Assembly: GCA_937890045.1 (NCBI GenBank)
Contig: CALBXV010000223.1
Span: 1 to 12,960, forward strand
From: an uncultured archaeon
Lineage (GTDB): Archaea; Thermoproteota; Nitrososphaeria; Nitrososphaerales; CALBXV01
Direction: 5' to 3'
DNA: 12,960 bases
Both the position numbers and the translations under genes were made by a program. Shown one piece after another: positions 463 through 12,871 of the stretch. The stretch's first letter is position 1; every line of letters starts with the position of its first letter. Under the pieces are notes generated by a model. It had not been told where the DNA came from. It did not search any database and was given only the letters and a program-made list of their open reading frames with translations.

Positions 463-831
463 ATGAAAATAACACAAGAAGATATATTAGAATATTTAGA
501 TAAATGTAATATGCTACAATTAAGTGAATTAGTTAAAAAGATTGAAGATAAGTTTGATGTAGTTACCGTACAATCAGTTCAAACTATTGCTGTAGAAGAA
601 GTACAGAAAGAAGAAAAACCTTCTACTGTAAATTTAGTTTTAAAGAATGCTGGTAAAGAAAGACTTAAAGTTATAAAATTTATTAAAACAGAATTTGGAA
701 CACCATTACTGGAAGCAAAAAACTTGGTTGATAAAGCTCCTATTGTTATTAAAGAAAATATTATACCCGAGGAAGCTGATAAACTTAAACTAAAATTTGA
801 GGAAGTTGGAGCGGAGATGGAGATTAACTAA
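463..831 (+). CDS. rplL: ribosomal protein bL12 (L7/L12 stalk protein), phage-encoded
   Basis: This 122-residue protein matches bL12 along its whole length, and bacterial L7/L12 is about the same size. Residues 1-33 (KITQEDILEYLDKC...ELVKKIEDKFDV) form the N-terminal dimerisation domain, about 34-54 the Glu/Val-rich hinge, and 55-122 the globular C-terminal domain. The factor-binding helices are kept: KVIKFIK (69-75), the turn ending PLLEAKNLVDKAP (81-93), and the AEMEI end strand. Aligned with E. coli, Ile69, Lys70, Leu80, Glu82 and Lys84 are conserved, and Arg73 is Lys. Known: bL12 recruits and activates elongation factors on the ribosome, and viral bL12 genes have been reported in environmental phages. 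Inferred: it could join host ribosomes during infection. Its neighbour begins two bases after its stop. Confidence 0.95.
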   Translation: MKITQEDILEYLDKCNMLQLSELVKKIEDKFDVVTVQSVQTIAVEEVQKEEKPSTVNLVLKNAGKERLKVIKFIKTEFGTPLLEAKNLVDKAPIVIKENIIPEEADKLKLKFEEVGAEMEIN

Positions 832-5966: not shown

Positions 5967-6164
5967 ATGATAAACGAGGTATTAAAGATTTACGAACAAT
6001 GGGGATATGACCGAGCGGTCAGGGAAGTTCGAGATATGTGCTTTGATGGCAGGATAGCCGTTGTACAAAGGCAACAAATAATGAATGTCTTAGCGGAGAG
6101 AGAAATGGGGCCTTCTCAAAGATCAATAACAAAAAAAGTTAAAAAAAGTGAAAATAAAGCTTGA
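5967..6164 (+). CDS. small basic protein of unknown function
   Basis: A 65-residue helical protein (MINEVLKIYEQWGYDRAVRE, VVQRQQIMNVLAEREM) with a basic tail ending KKVKKSENKA. The tail and stop codon are written by the 31-bp repeat that also forms the next promoter: the TGA stop is inside that promoter's TTGACA. The gene at 8631-8786 ends in the same KKSENKA for the same reason. An AAGG five bases before the ATG could serve as ribosome site only on transcripts from further upstream. No family recognised; the Arg-rich helices would suit nucleic-acid contact. Confidence 0.65.
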   Translation: MINEVLKIYEQWGYDRAVREVRDMCFDGRIAVVQRQQIMNVLAEREMGPSQRSITKKVKKSENKA

Positions 6165-6169
6165 CATTG
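6139..6169 (+). repeat. 31-bp exact direct repeat, copy 1 (UP element plus -35)
   Basis: Identical over 31 bases to 8761-8791 and preceded in both cases by a seven-A run. It holds A-tracts and the TTGACA box and at the same time encodes the C-terminal KKSENKA and stop of the upstream gene. The A-tracts in front of -35 fit an RNA polymerase alpha-subunit (UP) contact site. Confidence 0.9.
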
Positions 6170-6189
6170 ACGCCGATATGTCGTATATT
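6161..6189 (+). promoter_or_regulatory. sigma70-like promoter 2 of 3
   Basis: TTGACA at 6161-6166, a 17-base spacer and TATATT at 6184-6189, followed by AGGGTAT. Transcription should begin near 6195-6197, three to five bases before the ATG at 6200. The AGGG that would act as ribosome site (6190-6193) abuts the -10 box and would not be in the transcript, so translation would be leaderless or depend on read-through RNA. Confidence 0.8.
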
Positions 6190-6199
6190 AGGGTATAAG

Positions 6200-8392
6200 A
6201 TGAGTGAAAAGAAGTCAGTTTTGAGAAGTTTCAATCCGATGGCTCTTCGTGATAAATATTCGGCAGATGCTGTCAATAAACGGATGTTGAATAAACAGAA
6301 CAACTTCTCCTCATTTTGGTTGGATGATGATTGGAAAAACACGGGATCTATCTTTGATGAAGAGATTGAAAACCCGAAAGTTGACTTAATTGCGTTGGCT
6401 TCTTATCGGAGGGCAATAGCAAACTTCGTCAATATCTTAACGAAAAAGGATATTCCAGTTACATTTAAAACCTCTGGTGATTCTTATACTGATGGCAAGA
6501 AAGTTGTCATTTCATCTAAGTTAGATGACAAATTATTTGATAGTTCGGTTGGGTTAGCCCTTCACGAAGGTTCTCACGTTTTACTGTCAGATTTTGATTT
6601 TCTTAAACAACTTGATATAAATATTCCACAAGAATATTATGATAGGTCTGAATTGAAGGGGTTTTCTAAACAGGAAACCATTGGTTATGTTAAGAATCTT
6701 TTAAACTTCGTAGAAGATAGGAGAATTGATCATTATGTTTTTACTACTTCTCCTGGTTACAAAGGTTATTATCATTCGATGTATGATAAGTATTTTTACT
6801 TTAAAGCTATTGACATAGGATTAAAATCTTCTGAATATACTGAAGAAACTATTGATTCTTATTTCTTTAGAATTGTTAATATTACTAATTCCAATACTAA
6901 TTTAAATGCTCTTAAGGGATTAAGAGATATTTGGAAAATTTTAGATTTGAGGAATATTGGAAGATTATCTTCTATTGAAAAAACTTTCAAAGTCGCATTA
7001 GATATGTACGATATTATTCTGAATAACATTACTGATGGAATTGAAAAAGTAGATTCGGAAACTGGTGAAGTTTCTTACGAGAGGACTGATGGCGGTGGTG
7101 ATAAGAGTAATTCTGAGTCTACTGAAACTATAACTGATGAAGATTTTGATAAACTACTTGATTCGATTGAGAGTGGTGAAATGGAAACCGCCGGTGCACC
7201 TTCTGAGTCTGGAATAAGTATTCCTACTCCAGGTGGTGGAAAATCTGATGATAGTGATGGAAGTGACGAGATAGAAACCGAAACAATTGAACTGACAGAA
7301 AATCAGAAAAAACAACTTGAAAACGCCATCAAGAAACAGAAGAAGTTTATGGATGGTGAGATTTCTAAAAAGAATGTAACTAAAAAAGATAAAATGGCTT
7401 TAGACGCAGTTGAAGAAGCTGGTATGGAGTATAAGGAAGCTGGAAAAGATTTTAAAGACTGGGAAGGTAAATCAACTCCCACGAAAGTTATTGTTGTAAA
7501 TAACCTGACAAAAAAATTAATTGATTCAGGCACTATTAAAATAGCAATTGAGTGGAATGGAACGAGTTATGATGGTAGTGGTTACAGAGGGTCAGAAACT
7601 TACATTGAAGATGGTATTAGGTTGGGAACTATTCTTGGAAGAAAACTTCAAGTGAGGGGTGAAACCAGAGAAACAAAATATACTCGGAAATTCAAAGGTA
7701 GAATTGATAAAAGATTAATTGCGGAGTTGGGGTTTGATAATGAAAATGTTTTCAGTCAGACTTTTGTGGATAGTTACCCAGATGCTTATCTTCACATTTC
7801 AGTTGATGCTAGTGGTTCTATGAGTGGTGATAAATGGAGAAATACAATGACTTCTGTAGTAGCTATAGCAAAAGCAGTTGATATGATTTCCAATGTAGAT
7901 TTAGTAATCACATTTAGGGCGACAGAGAATAGTGGTGGTAGGCGTGGAGAATCTTTTCCTCTTATTCTCATTGCGTATGATTCAAGAAAAGATTCGTTTT
8001 CTAAAATTAAAAATTTATTTAAGTACATAAGTACTGTAGGAACAACCCCCGAAGGTTTGACTTTCGAGGCGATTATGGATGATATGATTCCTGGTGGAAG
8101 AGACAGAGAATCTTACTTCTTAAATTTTTCAGATGGAATGCCGATGTTTAGTAACAAAGATATTAGATATTATCATGATGTGGCTGTAAATCACACCAGA
8201 AAGATGGTTAAAGAAATTAGAAATAGAGGAATTAAAGTTCTTAGTTATTTCATTTCTGGAAGATATGACAGTGAATATGATTCAGATTCCTCAGATTTCA
8301 AAACTATGTATGGAAGTGATTCACATTTTATTGATGTAACTTCTGTAATGGCAGTAGCAAAAACAATGAATCAGAAATTTTTGGAGAAATAA
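6200..8392 (+). CDS. VWA-domain protein with HExxH metallopeptidase-like motif (CobT-like partner of AAA+ ATPase)
   Basis: A 730-residue protein. The start is the ATG at 6200; the frame continues up to a TTG at 6161, but that is the promoter's -35 box. HEGSH at 122-126 matches HExxH, and VEDRRID at 171-177 gives a candidate third metal ligand about 46 residues later. Residues about 300-380 are a Ser/Asp/Glu/Gly-rich linker, followed by a Lys-rich helical part. A VWA domain carries DASGSMSG at 536-543, the MIDAS D-x-S-x-S, with later TTPEG and FSDGMP supplying the Thr and Asp. The layout resembles CobT/CoxE-type VWA partners of MoxR-family ATPases; the ATPase lies three small genes downstream. 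Known: such pairs remodel or metallate target proteins. Inferred: a phage version with a peptidase-like module. The target is unknown. Confidence 0.85.
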   Translation: MSEKKSVLRSFNPMALRDKYSADAVNKRMLNKQNNFSSFWLDDDWKNTGSIFDEEIENPKVDLIALASYRRAIANFVNILTKKDIPVTFKTSGDSYTDGKKVVISSKLDDKLFDSSVGLALHEGSHVLLSDFDFLKQLDINIPQEYYDRSELKGFSKQETIGYVKNLLNFVEDRRIDHYVFTTSPGYKGYYHSMYDKYFYFKAIDIGLKSSEYTEETIDSYFFRIVNITNSNTNLNALKGLRDIWKILDLRNIGRLSSIEKTFKVALDMYDIILNNITDGIEKVDSETGEVSYERTDGGGDKSNSESTETITDEDFDKLLDSIESGEMETAGAPSESGISIPTPGGGKSDDSDGSDEIETETIELTENQKKQLENAIKKQKKFMDGEISKKNVTKKDKMALDAVEEAGMEYKEAGKDFKDWEGKSTPTKVIVVNNLTKKLIDSGTIKIAIEWNGTSYDGSGYRGSETYIEDGIRLGTILGRKLQVRGETRETKYTRKFKGRIDKRLIAELGFDNENVFSQTFVDSYPDAYLHISVDASGSMSGDKWRNTMTSVVAIAKAVDMISNVDLVITFRATENSGGRRGESFPLILIAYDSRKDSFSKIKNLFKYISTVGTTPEGLTFEAIMDDMIPGGRDRESYFLNFSDGMPMFSNKDIRYYHDVAVNHTRKMVKEIRNRGIKVLSYFISGRYDSEYDSDSSDFKTMYGSDSHFIDVTSVMAVAKTMNQKFLEK

Positions 8393-8855: not shown

Positions 8856-10028
8856 ATGAATAGAAAAATAGTTGTCAAAATCGAAAAATCAGGCAATAGA
8901 TTTAATGCCTGGGATTTCGATGGCAACAAACTGACTTCTGAGATTGGAACTTCAACTCGGAAATCAGCTTTTAACGCTGGAATGGCATTGGAACAGAGAA
9001 CTGGTAAGGGCGGAAGAACTTACTGGTGGAAAGTCCCGATGTCTGAATTTGAAAGTTCCAGCGAAGTTGTCATCGATACAGCTTCAATTGATGTACCTGA
9101 GGAACATGCTGAAATGTTAAATTTCATTCATAGTTCGTACAGATTGAAGCCTACGGGACTGGTGATGAAGGAACTAAAGTGGAAATACTTAGTTCGGTCA
9201 GCAGTACGTGGAAAGAATATTCTAATGACTGGACCCGCCGGAAGTGGAAAAACCATGGCGGCCAAGTCAGTAGTTAATTCGTTGGATAGACCGGATTTTT
9301 ACTTTAATCTTGGAGCCACTCAGGATCCTCGGTCAACTTTAATTGGGAACACTCACTTTGATAAAAAGAAAGGAACTTATTTTTCCAAATCTCTTTTTGT
9401 CACGGCGATTACAACTCCCAATTCAGTTGTTCTCTTGGATGAATTGAGTAGGGCTCACCCCGACGCATGGAACATTCTAATGACTGTTCTTGATGAAGGT
9501 CAGAGATATTTAAGGTTGGATGAATCAGATGGTTCAGAAACCGTAAATGTCGCAGAAGGAGTTACTTTCGTAGCTACGGCTAACATCGGGAATGAATACA
9601 CTTCTACCAGAGTTATGGATAAAGCTCTGATGGACAGGTTCATTGTTGTTGAGATGGATGTTCTAAACTCTGAAGAGGAACTTGGACTTCTTGAATATAT
9701 GTTTCCTCACGTTGATGTTGAACCTCTGAAAGCAGTTTCAGAGATAGCTCATTTAACGAGAGTTGAATCCAAATCAGAAACCGGAAGGATTTCATCAGCA
9801 GTTTCAACGAGAACTTCTGTTGAGATGGCCGGTCTGATGTATGATGGATTTGGGTTGGATGAGGCAGCAGAAGTAACCATTTATCCTCAGTATTCTGAAG
9901 ATGGTGGGTTAGATTCTGAAAGGACTTACATTAAACAGCTTGTTCAGAAGTATGTAAGTGATGGAAGTTCTGAAGACCTGTTCAACGAAGATGAAATTGA
10001 AGAGTCAAACATGAAAGGTGATTCATAA
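8856..10028 (+). CDS. AAA+ ATPase of the MoxR/CobS type
   Basis: A 390-residue ATPase. Residues 1-65 form a small N-terminal domain ending in RTGKGGRTYWWKVPM. The AAA+ core starts near 100: Walker A GPAGSGKT at 126-133, Walker B VVLLDELSRA at 191-200, sensor 1 Asn in FVATANIGNEY (243), and DKALMDRF with the probable Arg finger at 261. The order and the LSRA after Walker B are typical of MoxR/CobS/NorQ ATPases, which act as hexamers with a VWA partner. The partner gene lies at 6200-8392 under a matching promoter. Phage genes of this type are often labelled cobS, but cobalt chelation is not shown here. The gene is visibly less AT-rich than its surroundings (29 of 60 bases are G or C at 9781-9840). 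It ends in a TAATG overlap. Confidence 0.92.
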   Translation: MNRKIVVKIEKSGNRFNAWDFDGNKLTSEIGTSTRKSAFNAGMALEQRTGKGGRTYWWKVPMSEFESSSEVVIDTASIDVPEEHAEMLNFIHSSYRLKPTGLVMKELKWKYLVRSAVRGKNILMTGPAGSGKTMAAKSVVNSLDRPDFYFNLGATQDPRSTLIGNTHFDKKKGTYFSKSLFVTAITTPNSVVLLDELSRAHPDAWNILMTVLDEGQRYLRLDESDGSETVNVAEGVTFVATANIGNEYTSTRVMDKALMDRFIVVEMDVLNSEEELGLLEYMFPHVDVEPLKAVSEIAHLTRVESKSETGRISSAVSTRTSVEMAGLMYDGFGLDEAAEVTIYPQYSEDGGLDSERTYIKQLVQKYVSDGSSEDLFNEDEIEESNMKGDS

Positions 10029-11965: not shown

Positions 11966-12352
11966 GTGGGCAAACAAGTTAAGAAACATGGATATAGTTG
12001 TAAATTAGTTAGAGTTGTTGATGGTGATACAGCGGATGCAATGATTGATTTAGGATTTAATACGTGGGTGAAAAAAAGAATAAGATTTTATGGTGTTGAT
12101 ACTTGGGAAAGTAGAACACGGGATTTAGAAGAAAAGAAAAAGGGGTTGGAAGCAAAAGCTTATGTAAAAGACCTTTTAGAAAATTCAGATGATGGTAAGT
12201 TTTCAATTATATCACATGGAACTGGTAAGTATGGTCGCGTGTTAGGTGAGTTATTTGTTAAAGGTCACGAACAATCTGTAAATGAATTACTTAAAGAGAA
12301 CGGACATGCGTACGAGTATCACGGAGAAAAGAAAAAAGTATTTGGGAGTTAA
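11966..12352 (+). CDS. staphylococcal-nuclease-like (SNase) endonuclease
   Basis: A 128-residue thermonuclease-type enzyme that would cut DNA or RNA with Ca2+. The S. aureus active-site set is complete: VVDGDT with Asp19/Asp21, Arg40 in RIRFYGVDTWE, Asp45, Thr46 and Glu48, and Arg91 in KYGRVLGEL. The closing segment (SVNELLKENGHAY) matches the family's last helix. The start is GTG at 11966, eight bases after GGAG; the ATG two bases upstream is out of frame and gives only 14 codons. No signal peptide is seen, so it acts in the cytoplasm, perhaps in host DNA breakdown or defence. The selenoprotein gene starts two bases after its stop. Confidence 0.9.
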   Translation: MGKQVKKHGYSCKLVRVVDGDTADAMIDLGFNTWVKKRIRFYGVDTWESRTRDLEEKKKGLEAKAYVKDLLENSDDGKFSIISHGTGKYGRVLGELFVKGHEQSVNELLKENGHAYEYHGEKKKVFGS

Positions 12353-12353
12353 T

Positions 12354-12608
12354 GTGAATATTTCAATAGAATATTGCATGGAATGAAACTATGAACCAAG
12401 AGCTCTCAGTTTGAGAGATGTATTACAGCAAGAATATCCCAATACTGAAATTGAATTACTTCCATCAGGTGGCGGTGTATTTGAAGTTATGATTAATGGT
12501 CACTTAAATGTTTTCTCTAAAAGAAAAACAGGAAGATTTCCAATATCGGAATATGAGGTTATTAAAACAATATCAGATGCTATTCTAGAAAGAAGAGTAA
12601 GTGTATGA
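12354..12608 (+). CDS. selenoprotein W-like (Rdx family) with in-frame TGA as selenocysteine
   Basis: Starts at GTG 12354, five bases after GGGAG, and gives 84 residues if the TGA at 12384-12386 is read through. The N-terminus is then NISIEYCMEUNYEPRAL: Cys8 and U11 form the CxxU redox motif of SelW (human VYCGAUGY). The rest matches the Rdx fold: LRDVLQQEYPNTEIELLPSG, GGVFEVMINGHL, FSKRKTGRFP. Length equals typical SelW (about 85). A perfect six-bp hairpin follows the TGA at SECIS distance. The fragment after the TGA has only a TTG at 12411 with no ribosome site, and would lack the redox motif. TGA is used as a normal stop elsewhere here. Role inferred: thiol/selenol redox with glutathione or thioredoxin. 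Decoding would need host SelA-D. The alternative is a Cys-to-stop mutation. Confidence 0.85.
12384..12386 (+). other. probable selenocysteine codon (TGA)
   Basis: In-frame TGA located exactly where SelW proteins have Sec or Cys, three residues after Cys8. Homology is strong on both sides in the same frame. Confidence 0.8.
12403..12417 (+). promoter_or_regulatory. bacterial SECIS-like hairpin
   Basis: CTCTCA, loop GTT, TGAGAG: six perfect pairs with a three-base loop starting with G. The loop begins 22 bases after the TGA. Known rules for bacterial SECIS elements are a short stem-loop in the coding region about 16-37 bases downstream of UGA with a G among the first two loop bases, and these are met. 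It would bind SelB. Confidence 0.7.
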
Positions 12609-12871
12609 AATATTATATTATTAATGAACACGATATTAATGAACTACCTATTAAATATATTAGGTTTCTAAAAAGGGTATCTATTCCAAATCCAATGATA
12701 GATGATAAACCAAAGGATTTACATTGTTTTGAAAAATATAACAATGCAATGGCTCATCAGTTATGGTGTAGAGAATGTGGTAGAGATTTTGAGGAAGAAG
12801 AAACTTATACCTTTGATGAACTACTAAAGAATGCTGGGGTTATAAAAGGCGGAGATGATTATAAGACATAG
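12605..12871 (+). CDS. small Cys-pair protein of unknown function
   Basis: An 88-residue protein that begins in ATGA overlap with the selenoprotein stop. The N-terminus is MKYYIINEHDINELPIKYIR; residues 40-41 (HC), 51 (His) and CREC at 55-58 could build a zinc site; an acidic helix (FEEEETYTFDELLKNAG) follows. No family recognised. The coupling suggests shared expression with the selenoprotein. Confidence 0.7.
   Translation: MKYYIINEHDINELPIKYIRFLKRVSIPNPMIDDKPKDLHCFEKYNNAMAHQLWCRECGRDFEEEETYTFDELLKNAGVIKGGDDYKT

What the first reader, a model, noticed from the sequence alone, without database searches (positions are those of the whole stretch)
12354..12608. Phage-encoded selenoprotein W with an in-frame TGA at the CxxU site
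Reading through the TGA at 12384-12386 joins two parts that together make a full-length SelW/Rdx protein (84 residues) with Cys8-x-x-U11. The frame has a GTG start with GGGAG at the right spacing and is flanked by tight gene overlaps. TGA is a regular stop elsewhere in the window, so the code is not simply reassigned. A virus relying on host selenocysteine insertion would be unusual, and standard annotation would lose the N-terminus and redox site.
Basis: partly seen in the sequence, partly recalled or inferred. Interest (0 to 1): 0.95.

Follow-up and report, generated by a model that had tools for sequence, protein, structure and literature searches.

The report
Phage gene for selenoprotein W
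A bacterial virus carries a gene of the selenoprotein W family with a UGA codon at the active site, followed by a predicted RNA hairpin whose pairing is kept across related viruses; the virus would likely need its host's selenocysteine machinery to make the full protein, which standard gene prediction cuts short.

Summary
Reading TGA 12384-12386 as a residue gives an 84-residue SelW/Rdx protein (Pfam Rdx 64.9 bits, cut-off 22.6; TIGR02174 63.6, cut-off 34.2).

SelW frames lie on 40 distinct IMG/VR contigs, all with TGA at this site. So do 118 of 118 bacterial relatives fetched (capped list) with a pattern that also allowed Cys or Trp; 29 of 30 such genomes tested have SelB over cut-off. A predicted hairpin loop starts 22 nt after the UGA. 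In 24 distinct viral sequences 98.6% of its pair cells pair, against 63.0% shuffled.

The window shares gene order with three other viral loci, and 8 of 31 SelW-bearing virus records searched carry a T4-type capsid gene. Those searched lack SelB (0/24), tRNA-Sec over cut-off (0/24) and SelD (0/31), so host decoding is inferred.

Not shown: selenium in the protein, the host, or what SelW does in infection. The window's hairpin (-6.5 kcal/mol) misses a published energy limit (-7.5). The paper searches listed no phage selenoprotein.

The parts
12354..12608 (+). selW coding sequence (84 codons plus stop), GTG start, Sec codon 11, TGA stop 12606-12608
   Evidence: Pfam Rdx 64.9 bits; TIGR02174 63.6 bits; model and fold matches
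12344..12348 (+). GGGAG, likely ribosome-binding site, 5 nt before GTG
   Evidence: Sequence; function inferred
12384..12386 (+). In-frame TGA, predicted selenocysteine codon of the C-x-x-U motif
   Evidence: TGA at this site in every viral SelW frame found (45 loci) and in 118 of 118 bacterial loci fetched
12403..12417 (+). Predicted bSECIS-like hairpin: stem 12403-12408 with 12412-12417, loop GUU 12409-12411, 22 nt after the UGA
   Evidence: Fold; covariation in 24 viral sequences and in 116 bacterial sequences plus the window
11966..12352 (+). SNase-type nuclease gene directly upstream; part of the shared block
   Evidence: Pfam SNase 34.5 bits, phrog_452 endonuclease; synteny
8856..10028 (+). 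AAA+ ATPase gene (called CobS-like here), anchor for finding related phages
   Evidence: Pfam AAA_5 63.4 bits, phrog_249; 105 relatives in IMG/VR, 80 kept
6161..8392 (+). 743-aa gene, called vWA/CobT-like here (label recalled; weak PHROGs matches); part of the shared block
   Evidence: phrog_1576 and phrog_5298, weak; no Pfam family; synteny

Best explanation
This is a phage-encoded gene of the selenoprotein W family whose in-frame UGA at 12384 is predicted to be read as selenocysteine, likely directed by the hairpin that follows it and likely using the host's selenocysteine machinery. Shown by sequence: SelW/Rdx identity and predicted fold, UGA in every related viral frame found, covariation of the stem, a place in a phage gene block, and no SelB, SelD or tRNA-Sec over cut-off in the virus records searched. 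Inferred: Sec insertion itself, a Sec-decoding host, and the biochemical role. The role I think most likely is a small thiol/selenol oxidoreductase that keeps phage enzymes reduced during infection. Ribonucleotide reductase is a candidate partner, because a vitamin-B12-type reductase gene (RTPR family) matches in 11 of 31 SelW-bearing virus records searched; that partner is a guess from co-occurrence.
For: Family: Pfam Rdx, TIGR02174, PDB chains, model pLDDT 85.2, and all 22 PDB fold matches at E<=1e-3 are SelW-family chains. Codon: TGA in all 45 viral SelW loci on 40 contigs, including 6 loci found among 80 chosen by a neighbouring gene, not by SelW; TGA in 118 of 118 bacterial loci fetched with a pattern that allowed TGC, TGT and TGG. 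Machinery: SelB over cut-off in 29 of 30 of the bacterial carriers tested, against 2 of 14 controls. Hairpin: 98.6% of cells paired against 63.0% shuffled, 50 two-sided cells against 19.6, score 0.835 against 0.171 (0 of 500 each), slid versions 31.9-59.7%. Viral context: shared block in L187, L188, L199; Gp23 in 8 of 31 records and 0 of 14 controls; the window in a virus-only set of 18 in one tree.
Against: No experiment and no host. The window's hairpin (-6.5 kcal/mol) misses the -7.5 limit quoted in PMC13188914, as do 12 of 24 viral sequences with the window counted; it is the MFE structure in 21 of 24. Two of the five covariation measures do not exceed the shuffles: pairs with a two-sided change 4 against 4.0, further pair types 11 against 10.3. 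Codon identity near the UGA is only mildly raised (62% against 54%). Of 132 database homologues 2 have Ser and 1 Arg at this site, possibly real losses of Sec. In the more careful tree the support for the window's virus-only group is weak (85/54).
Confidence: 0.92

Rival explanations
1. The phage or its host reads UGA as tryptophan (as in code 4), so residue 11 is Trp and no selenium is involved.
For: 128 of 132 database homologues carry W at this position.
Against: TGA ends 8 of 23 window genes and is internal only here, with 48 TGG codons in use. The aligned residue in the family is Cys. The bacterial carriers have SelB, and the stem covaries. The W rows are best read as UGA translated with table 4 by gene callers: the nearest fetched DNA (L014, 92% identical to P0108) has TGA. 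The DNA of the W rows themselves was not available.
Confidence: 0.02
2. The gene is read through at low level by ordinary UGA misreading, or only the 65-aa internal product is made; Sec is not inserted because the present host lacks or does not deploy the machinery.
For: No host is known, no Sec genes were found in the virus records searched, and the hairpin is weak in the window.
Against: UGA, the loop G and the pairing are kept in 24 distinct viral sequences, with no Cys form found. That is not expected if the residue did not matter.
Confidence: 0.04
3. The TGA is a sequencing error or a pseudogene mutation of a Cys-type SelW.
For: Raw reads could not be seen.
Against: The same codon recurs in all 45 viral SelW loci found. 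The truncated database form P0003, which the window encodes, is listed for 149 contigs.
Confidence: 0.01
4. The window is bacterial DNA, and SelW is an ordinary cellular selenoprotein gene.
For: The same subfamily is widespread in bacteria, and no capsid gene was identified in the window.
Against: The block with the 743-aa gene, the CobS-like gene, g11620, SNase and SelW recurs in viral loci L187, L188 and L199. Gp23 is on 8 of 31 SelW-bearing virus records. The tree puts the window's SelW among viral ones.
Confidence: 0.01

Closest known systems
Bacterial SelW-like selenoproteins (Rdx family PF10262; TIGR02174 CXXU_selWTH)
   Same: Same fold and C-x-x-U motif, UGA at the same codon, stem at the same place with G first in the loop. 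PMC1794560 notes that SelW-like has few or no Cys homologues in Sec-using organisms (passage).
   Different: Carried by phages without SelB, SelD or tRNA-Sec in the records searched; viral sequences group apart from the bacterial ones fetched.
Poxvirus selenoproteins (glutathione peroxidases of molluscum contagiosum and fowlpox viruses; PMC8310308, passages read)
   Same: A virus carries a selenoprotein gene that host factors decode.
   Different: Eukaryotic viruses, another protein family, another kind of SECIS and decoding system.
Phage-encoded tRNA-Sec of Basilisk-like phages (PMC6145125, passage read)
   Same: A link between phages and Sec decoding.
   Different: There a tRNA gene was reported; here a selenoprotein gene, with no tRNA-Sec over cut-off in 24 virus records searched.
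Phage glutaredoxins and thioredoxins (recalled)
   Same: Small redox proteins carried by phages, possible electron donors to ribonucleotide reductase.
   Different: Cys-based, no recoding. A glutaredoxin match occurs in 4 of 31 SelW-bearing records searched, 3 over cut-off.

Membership tests
SelW/Rdx protein family | Curated profile match | tested here: met
   Rdx 64.9 against 22.6; TIGR02174 63.6 against 34.2. The narrower NF041051 is just missed, 86.3 against 88.
SelW/Rdx protein family | C-x-x-C/U motif between first strand and first helix of a thioredoxin-like fold | tested here: met
   Residues 8-11 lie between E2-8 and H13-27 of the model; PDB SelW chains match it.
Bacterial selenoprotein gene | In-frame UGA aligned with Cys or Sec of homologues | tested here: met
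   Cys in the two PDB alignments printed; UGA in relatives.
Bacterial selenoprotein gene | bSECIS geometry: loop 3-9 nt, stem 4-16 bp, G in first two loop positions, 16-37 nt after UGA (PMC13188914, passage) | tested here: met
   Loop 3, stem 6, G first, 22 nt; the stem covaries.
Bacterial selenoprotein gene | Energy limit -7.5 kcal/mol in the same search model | tested here: not met
   Window -6.5; 12 of 24 viral sequences reach the limit. I treat this as a search setting, not a biological requirement, and call the element bSECIS-like.
Bacterial selenoprotein gene | SelA, SelB, SelC and SelD present in the cell | not testable with these tools
   Host unknown. SelB is over cut-off in 29 of 30 bacterial carriers of this SelW tested; SelA was not searched.
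Bacterial selenoprotein gene | Selenium in the purified protein | not testable with these tools
   Needs 75Se label or mass spectrometry.
T4-type tailed phages | Gp23-type major capsid protein | tested here: inconclusive
   In 8 of 31 SelW-bearing records searched, many of them fragments. The window has no identified capsid gene and is tied to these phages by synteny and by CobS-like identity up to 84%.

The most novel reading that the evidence does not exclude
Selenoproteins are a standing part of the gene pool of uncultured T4-type phages: viral SelW lineages keep UGA and a covarying hairpin of their own, tie productive infection to hosts that decode selenocysteine and to selenium supply, and may make up part of the SelW-like selenoproteins that marine surveys have counted as bacterial.
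Probability: 0.6. Interest if true: 0.88.

Novelty: new variant of a known kind. Interest (0 to 1): 0.82.

Why it matters
If translated as predicted, bacterial viruses use the 21st amino acid by leaning on a host system that many bacteria lack (recalled). SelW would then be made only in Sec-decoding hosts; elsewhere the UGA would leave a 10-residue stub. It links phage infection to selenium. It also shows how such genes are lost or misread in catalogues: the protein database holds a truncated form and forms with Trp at the Sec site. Phage SelW offers a compact system, one UGA and one 15-nt hairpin with natural covariation, for testing what SelB recognises.

Tried and rejected
Named phages: tblastn of SelW in 50,697 phage records gave no match. 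The best named match of the CobS-like protein was Microcystis phage Mel-JY01, 54% over 76%. A single-protein search of IMG/VR found nothing; DNA patterns and an alignment query were needed.

Hairpin energy as evidence: rejected, as it does not differ from shuffles and similar stems follow 44 of 345 TGAs. Codon conservation near the UGA is only mild.

Phage-borne Sec machinery: SelB 0 of 24, tRNA-Sec 0 of 24 over cut-off; 8 sub-cut-off hits in 6 records, where ARAGORN reads ordinary tRNAs; SelD 0 of 31. SelA was not searched. The 31 are 31 of the 40 SelW-bearing contigs; the 24 are part of those 31.

Other phage selenoproteins: a screen for conserved in-frame TGA gave 210 clusters. SelW was the largest (45 loci); of the 30 largest, which I looked at, the other 29 seemed antisense or non-coding frames (judged by eye).

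Host: no hit for the CobS-like protein in 52 genomes of the SAR324 MAG's phylum, nor for the SelW C-terminal part in 385 genomes of an alphaproteobacterial MAG's class; neither search had a positive control. The phage L7/L12 protein reaches at most 44% identity in the 30 bacterial genomes tried, too far to name a host. A single origin of all viral SelW is neither shown nor rejected (p-AU 0.43).

Rows dropped before counts: L019 (not SelW, TGC). Identical sequences were collapsed. L016, L026, L029 and L039 were mis-located by my motif finder and are TGA. One search used 59 of the 117 bacterial rows, four long-branch rows being left out on purpose, and 27 of the 29 viral rows.

Full report
WHAT IS IN THE SEQUENCE. 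The frame 12354-12608 starts with GTG, has GGGAG 5 nt upstream (12344-12348), holds one internal stop (TGA 12384-12386) and ends with TGA 12606-12608. It begins 1 nt after the stop of an SNase-type nuclease gene and overlaps the next ORF by ATGA. Read through, it gives 84 residues with C8-x-x-U11. Without read-through the listed product is 65 residues from TTG 12411.

FAMILY. The read-through matches Pfam Rdx (64.9 bits, cut-off 22.6) and NCBIfam CXXU_selWTH (63.6, cut-off 34.2; the narrower NF041051 is just missed, 86.3 against 88). A sequence search of the PDB finds five chains of the family; in the two alignments printed, position 11 meets Cys. An AlphaFold model of the read-through (Cys for Sec, one extra C from the terminal TGA, 37 aligned sequences) has mean pLDDT 85.2 and the order strand, helix, three strands, two helices. 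All 22 PDB matches at E<=1e-3 are SelW-family chains. PHROGs has no match at E<=0.001.

UGA IS NOT GENERALLY REASSIGNED. Of 23 hand-picked window genes 12 end with TAA, 8 with TGA (selW among them) and 3 with TAG. The only internal TGA is at 12384; TGG occurs 48 times. In this one gene UGA has two roles: predicted Sec at codon 11, stop at codon 85.

RELATIVES IN VIRUSES. No named phage record matches SelW. In IMG/VR, DNA patterns and an alignment query found relatives. The pattern left the third base of the Sec codon free, so TGA, TGC, TGT and TGG could all match. In the viral loci then held, 39 matched, 38 with TGA; the 39th (L019, TGC) is a short zinc-ribbon-like frame, not SelW. A profile scan of the viral loci held, with TGA read as Cys so that true Cys forms would show as well, found SelW in 45 loci on 40 distinct contigs. 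All have TGA: 41 are printed so, and 4 mis-located rows are TGA. A sample chosen without SelW is the 80 loci kept of 105 that encode a relative of the window's CobS-like neighbour. Six carry SelW, all TGA, including divergent forms such as YCTS-U-GYLNQALS. Many of the 80 are partial: of 39 that reach at least 6.5 kb upstream and 3.5 kb downstream of the anchor, 5 carry SelW. So the gene is optional in this group, and UGA is kept where it is present.

RELATIVES IN BACTERIA. Of 30 of those genomes searched, 30 have a match to the SelB profile and 29 are over its cut-off, against 2 of 14 control genomes over the cut-off. The thirtieth (L105) is a MAG and may be incomplete.

DATABASE PROTEINS. Among the 132 homologues listed (one search matched 3150 and listed 120), 128 carry W at the Sec position, 2 S, 1 R, and 1 is the truncated form. 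I infer that W is UGA translated with table 4 by a gene caller: the nearest fetched DNA (L014, 92% identical to P0108 with W) has TGA. The DNA of these proteins was not available, and they are not shown to be viral. The Ser and Arg forms could be real losses or errors.

THE HAIRPIN. Stem 12403-12408 with 12412-12417 closes a GUU loop that starts 22 nt after the UGA. The geometry fits the bSECIS model given in PMC13188914 (passages read). It misses that model's energy limit (-6.5 against -7.5), as do 12 of 24 viral sequences with the window counted; the hairpin is in the MFE structure of 21 of 24. In bacterial relatives 114 of 117 reach the limit, and the hairpin is in the MFE of 99. Energy alone proves nothing here. 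Covariation does: in 24 distinct viral sequences 98.6% of pair cells form standard pairs against 63.0% in shuffles, 50 cells change on both sides against 19.6, and the score is 0.835 against 0.171, 0 of 500 shuffles reaching any of these; slid versions give 31.9-59.7%. Two measures do not stand out: pairs with a two-sided change (4 against 4.0) and further pair types (11 against 10.3). The tool warns that relatedness inflates the shuffle control; the slid control keeps relatedness. Examples: CUCUCA/UGAGAG in the window, CUCUUA/UAAGAG in L003, CUCGUA/UACGAG in L024, CGGAAA/UUUCCG in L023. The loop G is invariant. In 116 bacterial sequences plus the window 94.3% of cells pair against 81.6% shuffled. 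Codon identity at shared residues is only mildly higher near the UGA (525 of 848) than in the rest (1262 of 2341).

VIRAL CONTEXT. The 743-aa (vWA-like) gene, the CobS-like gene, g11620, SNase and SelW come in this order in the window and in L187, L188 and L199 (L187 and L188 are near copies; g10429 also lies between in L199, as in the window). SelW begins 71-72 nt after the SNase match there. In L174 and L180 SelW lies between g5673 and the 743-aa gene; in L010 and L014 it follows g5673 with no match to the 743-aa gene on the piece; in L223 it lies between the 743-aa and CobS-like genes. Of 45 CobS-like loci with an SNase match and at least 600 bp beyond it, 3 have SelW there. T4-type Gp23 is on 8 of 31 SelW-bearing records and in 0 of 14 cellular controls; a terminase match is on 5 of 31, though 6 of 14 controls match that family too. 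Many records are fragments.

TREE. With 146 rows the window lies in a virus-only set of 18 (SH-aLRT 96); a second virus-only set of 10 has 99, and L017 stands apart. With the mixture model and 86 rows the window's group takes in L017 and sits beside four proteobacterial sequences (98/89 for the whole), its own support is weak (85/54), and one origin of all viral SelW is not rejected (p-AU 0.43).

MACHINERY AND HOST. No SelB in 24 virus records, no tRNA-Sec over cut-off in 24 (the 8 weaker hits lie at ordinary tRNAs), no SelD in 31. Host decoding is therefore inferred. Two host trials found nothing and lacked positive controls.

ROLE. From the family I infer a small thiol/selenol oxidoreductase. 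RTPR-type ribonucleotide reductase matches are on 11 of 31 SelW-bearing records, 9 over cut-off, and on 8 of the 10 records longer than 80 kb, some of them near copies. Glutaredoxin matches are on 4 of 31, 3 over cut-off. A role as reductant of ribonucleotide reductase is a guess that can be tested.

LITERATURE. Ten searches of the held open-access library listed no paper that I could see describing a phage selenoprotein. Listings were cut (20 of 493, 20 of 57, 10 of 42, 20 of 148), and subscription papers and preprints are mostly not held. PMC2398784 and PMC9402790 (passages) put SelW-like among the most widespread marine selenoproteins; PMC9402790 says that families other than those it names lack or have very few viral sequences. 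PMC1794560 (passages) notes few Cys homologues of SelW-like in Sec users. PMC6145125 (passage) reports tRNA-Sec in Basilisk-like phages. PMC8310308 (passages) describes poxvirus selenoproteins. In PMC13188914, PMC12013277, PMC5330540 and PMC9312934 the terms phage, virus and viral were not found. Of PMC7029224, PMC7139368 and PMC4022391 I saw single passages, none bearing on this.

VERDICT. Confirmed and supported: a phage gene for SelW, predicted to need host selenocysteine decoding, and one of a set kept in related uncultured phages. The protein family is known. Its recurrence with UGA and a covarying hairpin in T4-type phages is, as far as searched here, undescribed.

Noticed in passing
window 463-831 (+): Phage-encoded ribosomal protein L7/L12 (TIGR00855 95.3 bits, cut-off 84.4); at most 44% identical to the 30 bacterial genomes tried.
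   Followed up: partly
database proteins P0002, P0004-P0133: 128 of 132 listed SelW homologues carry Trp at the Sec position, probably UGA read with table 4 by gene callers: a catalogue-wide misreading.
   Followed up: partly
L016, L020-L023, L025, L026, L028, L029, L031, L032, L034, L037, L039, L040: A second viral SelW group (YCGS-U-NYKPQAESLS type) with a different stem (e.g. CAGAAA/UUUCUG) and Gp23 on three of its records.
   Followed up: partly
L002 173-2152 (-); records of L011's neighbours not included; records of L017, L026, L027, L029, L030, L033, L038, L188, L199, L223: RTPR-type ribonucleotide reductase genes on 11 of 31 SelW-bearing virus records searched.
   Followed up: partly
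L105 (contig PTLH01000157.1): The one of 30 bacterial carriers without SelB over cut-off; its 3.6-kb contig and MAG may be incomplete, or its SelW may be foreign.
   Followed up: no
window 12605-12871 (+): ORF overlapping the selW stop by ATGA, with a C-x-x-C pair; no family in Pfam or PHROGs and no match in the related viral loci.
   Followed up: partly
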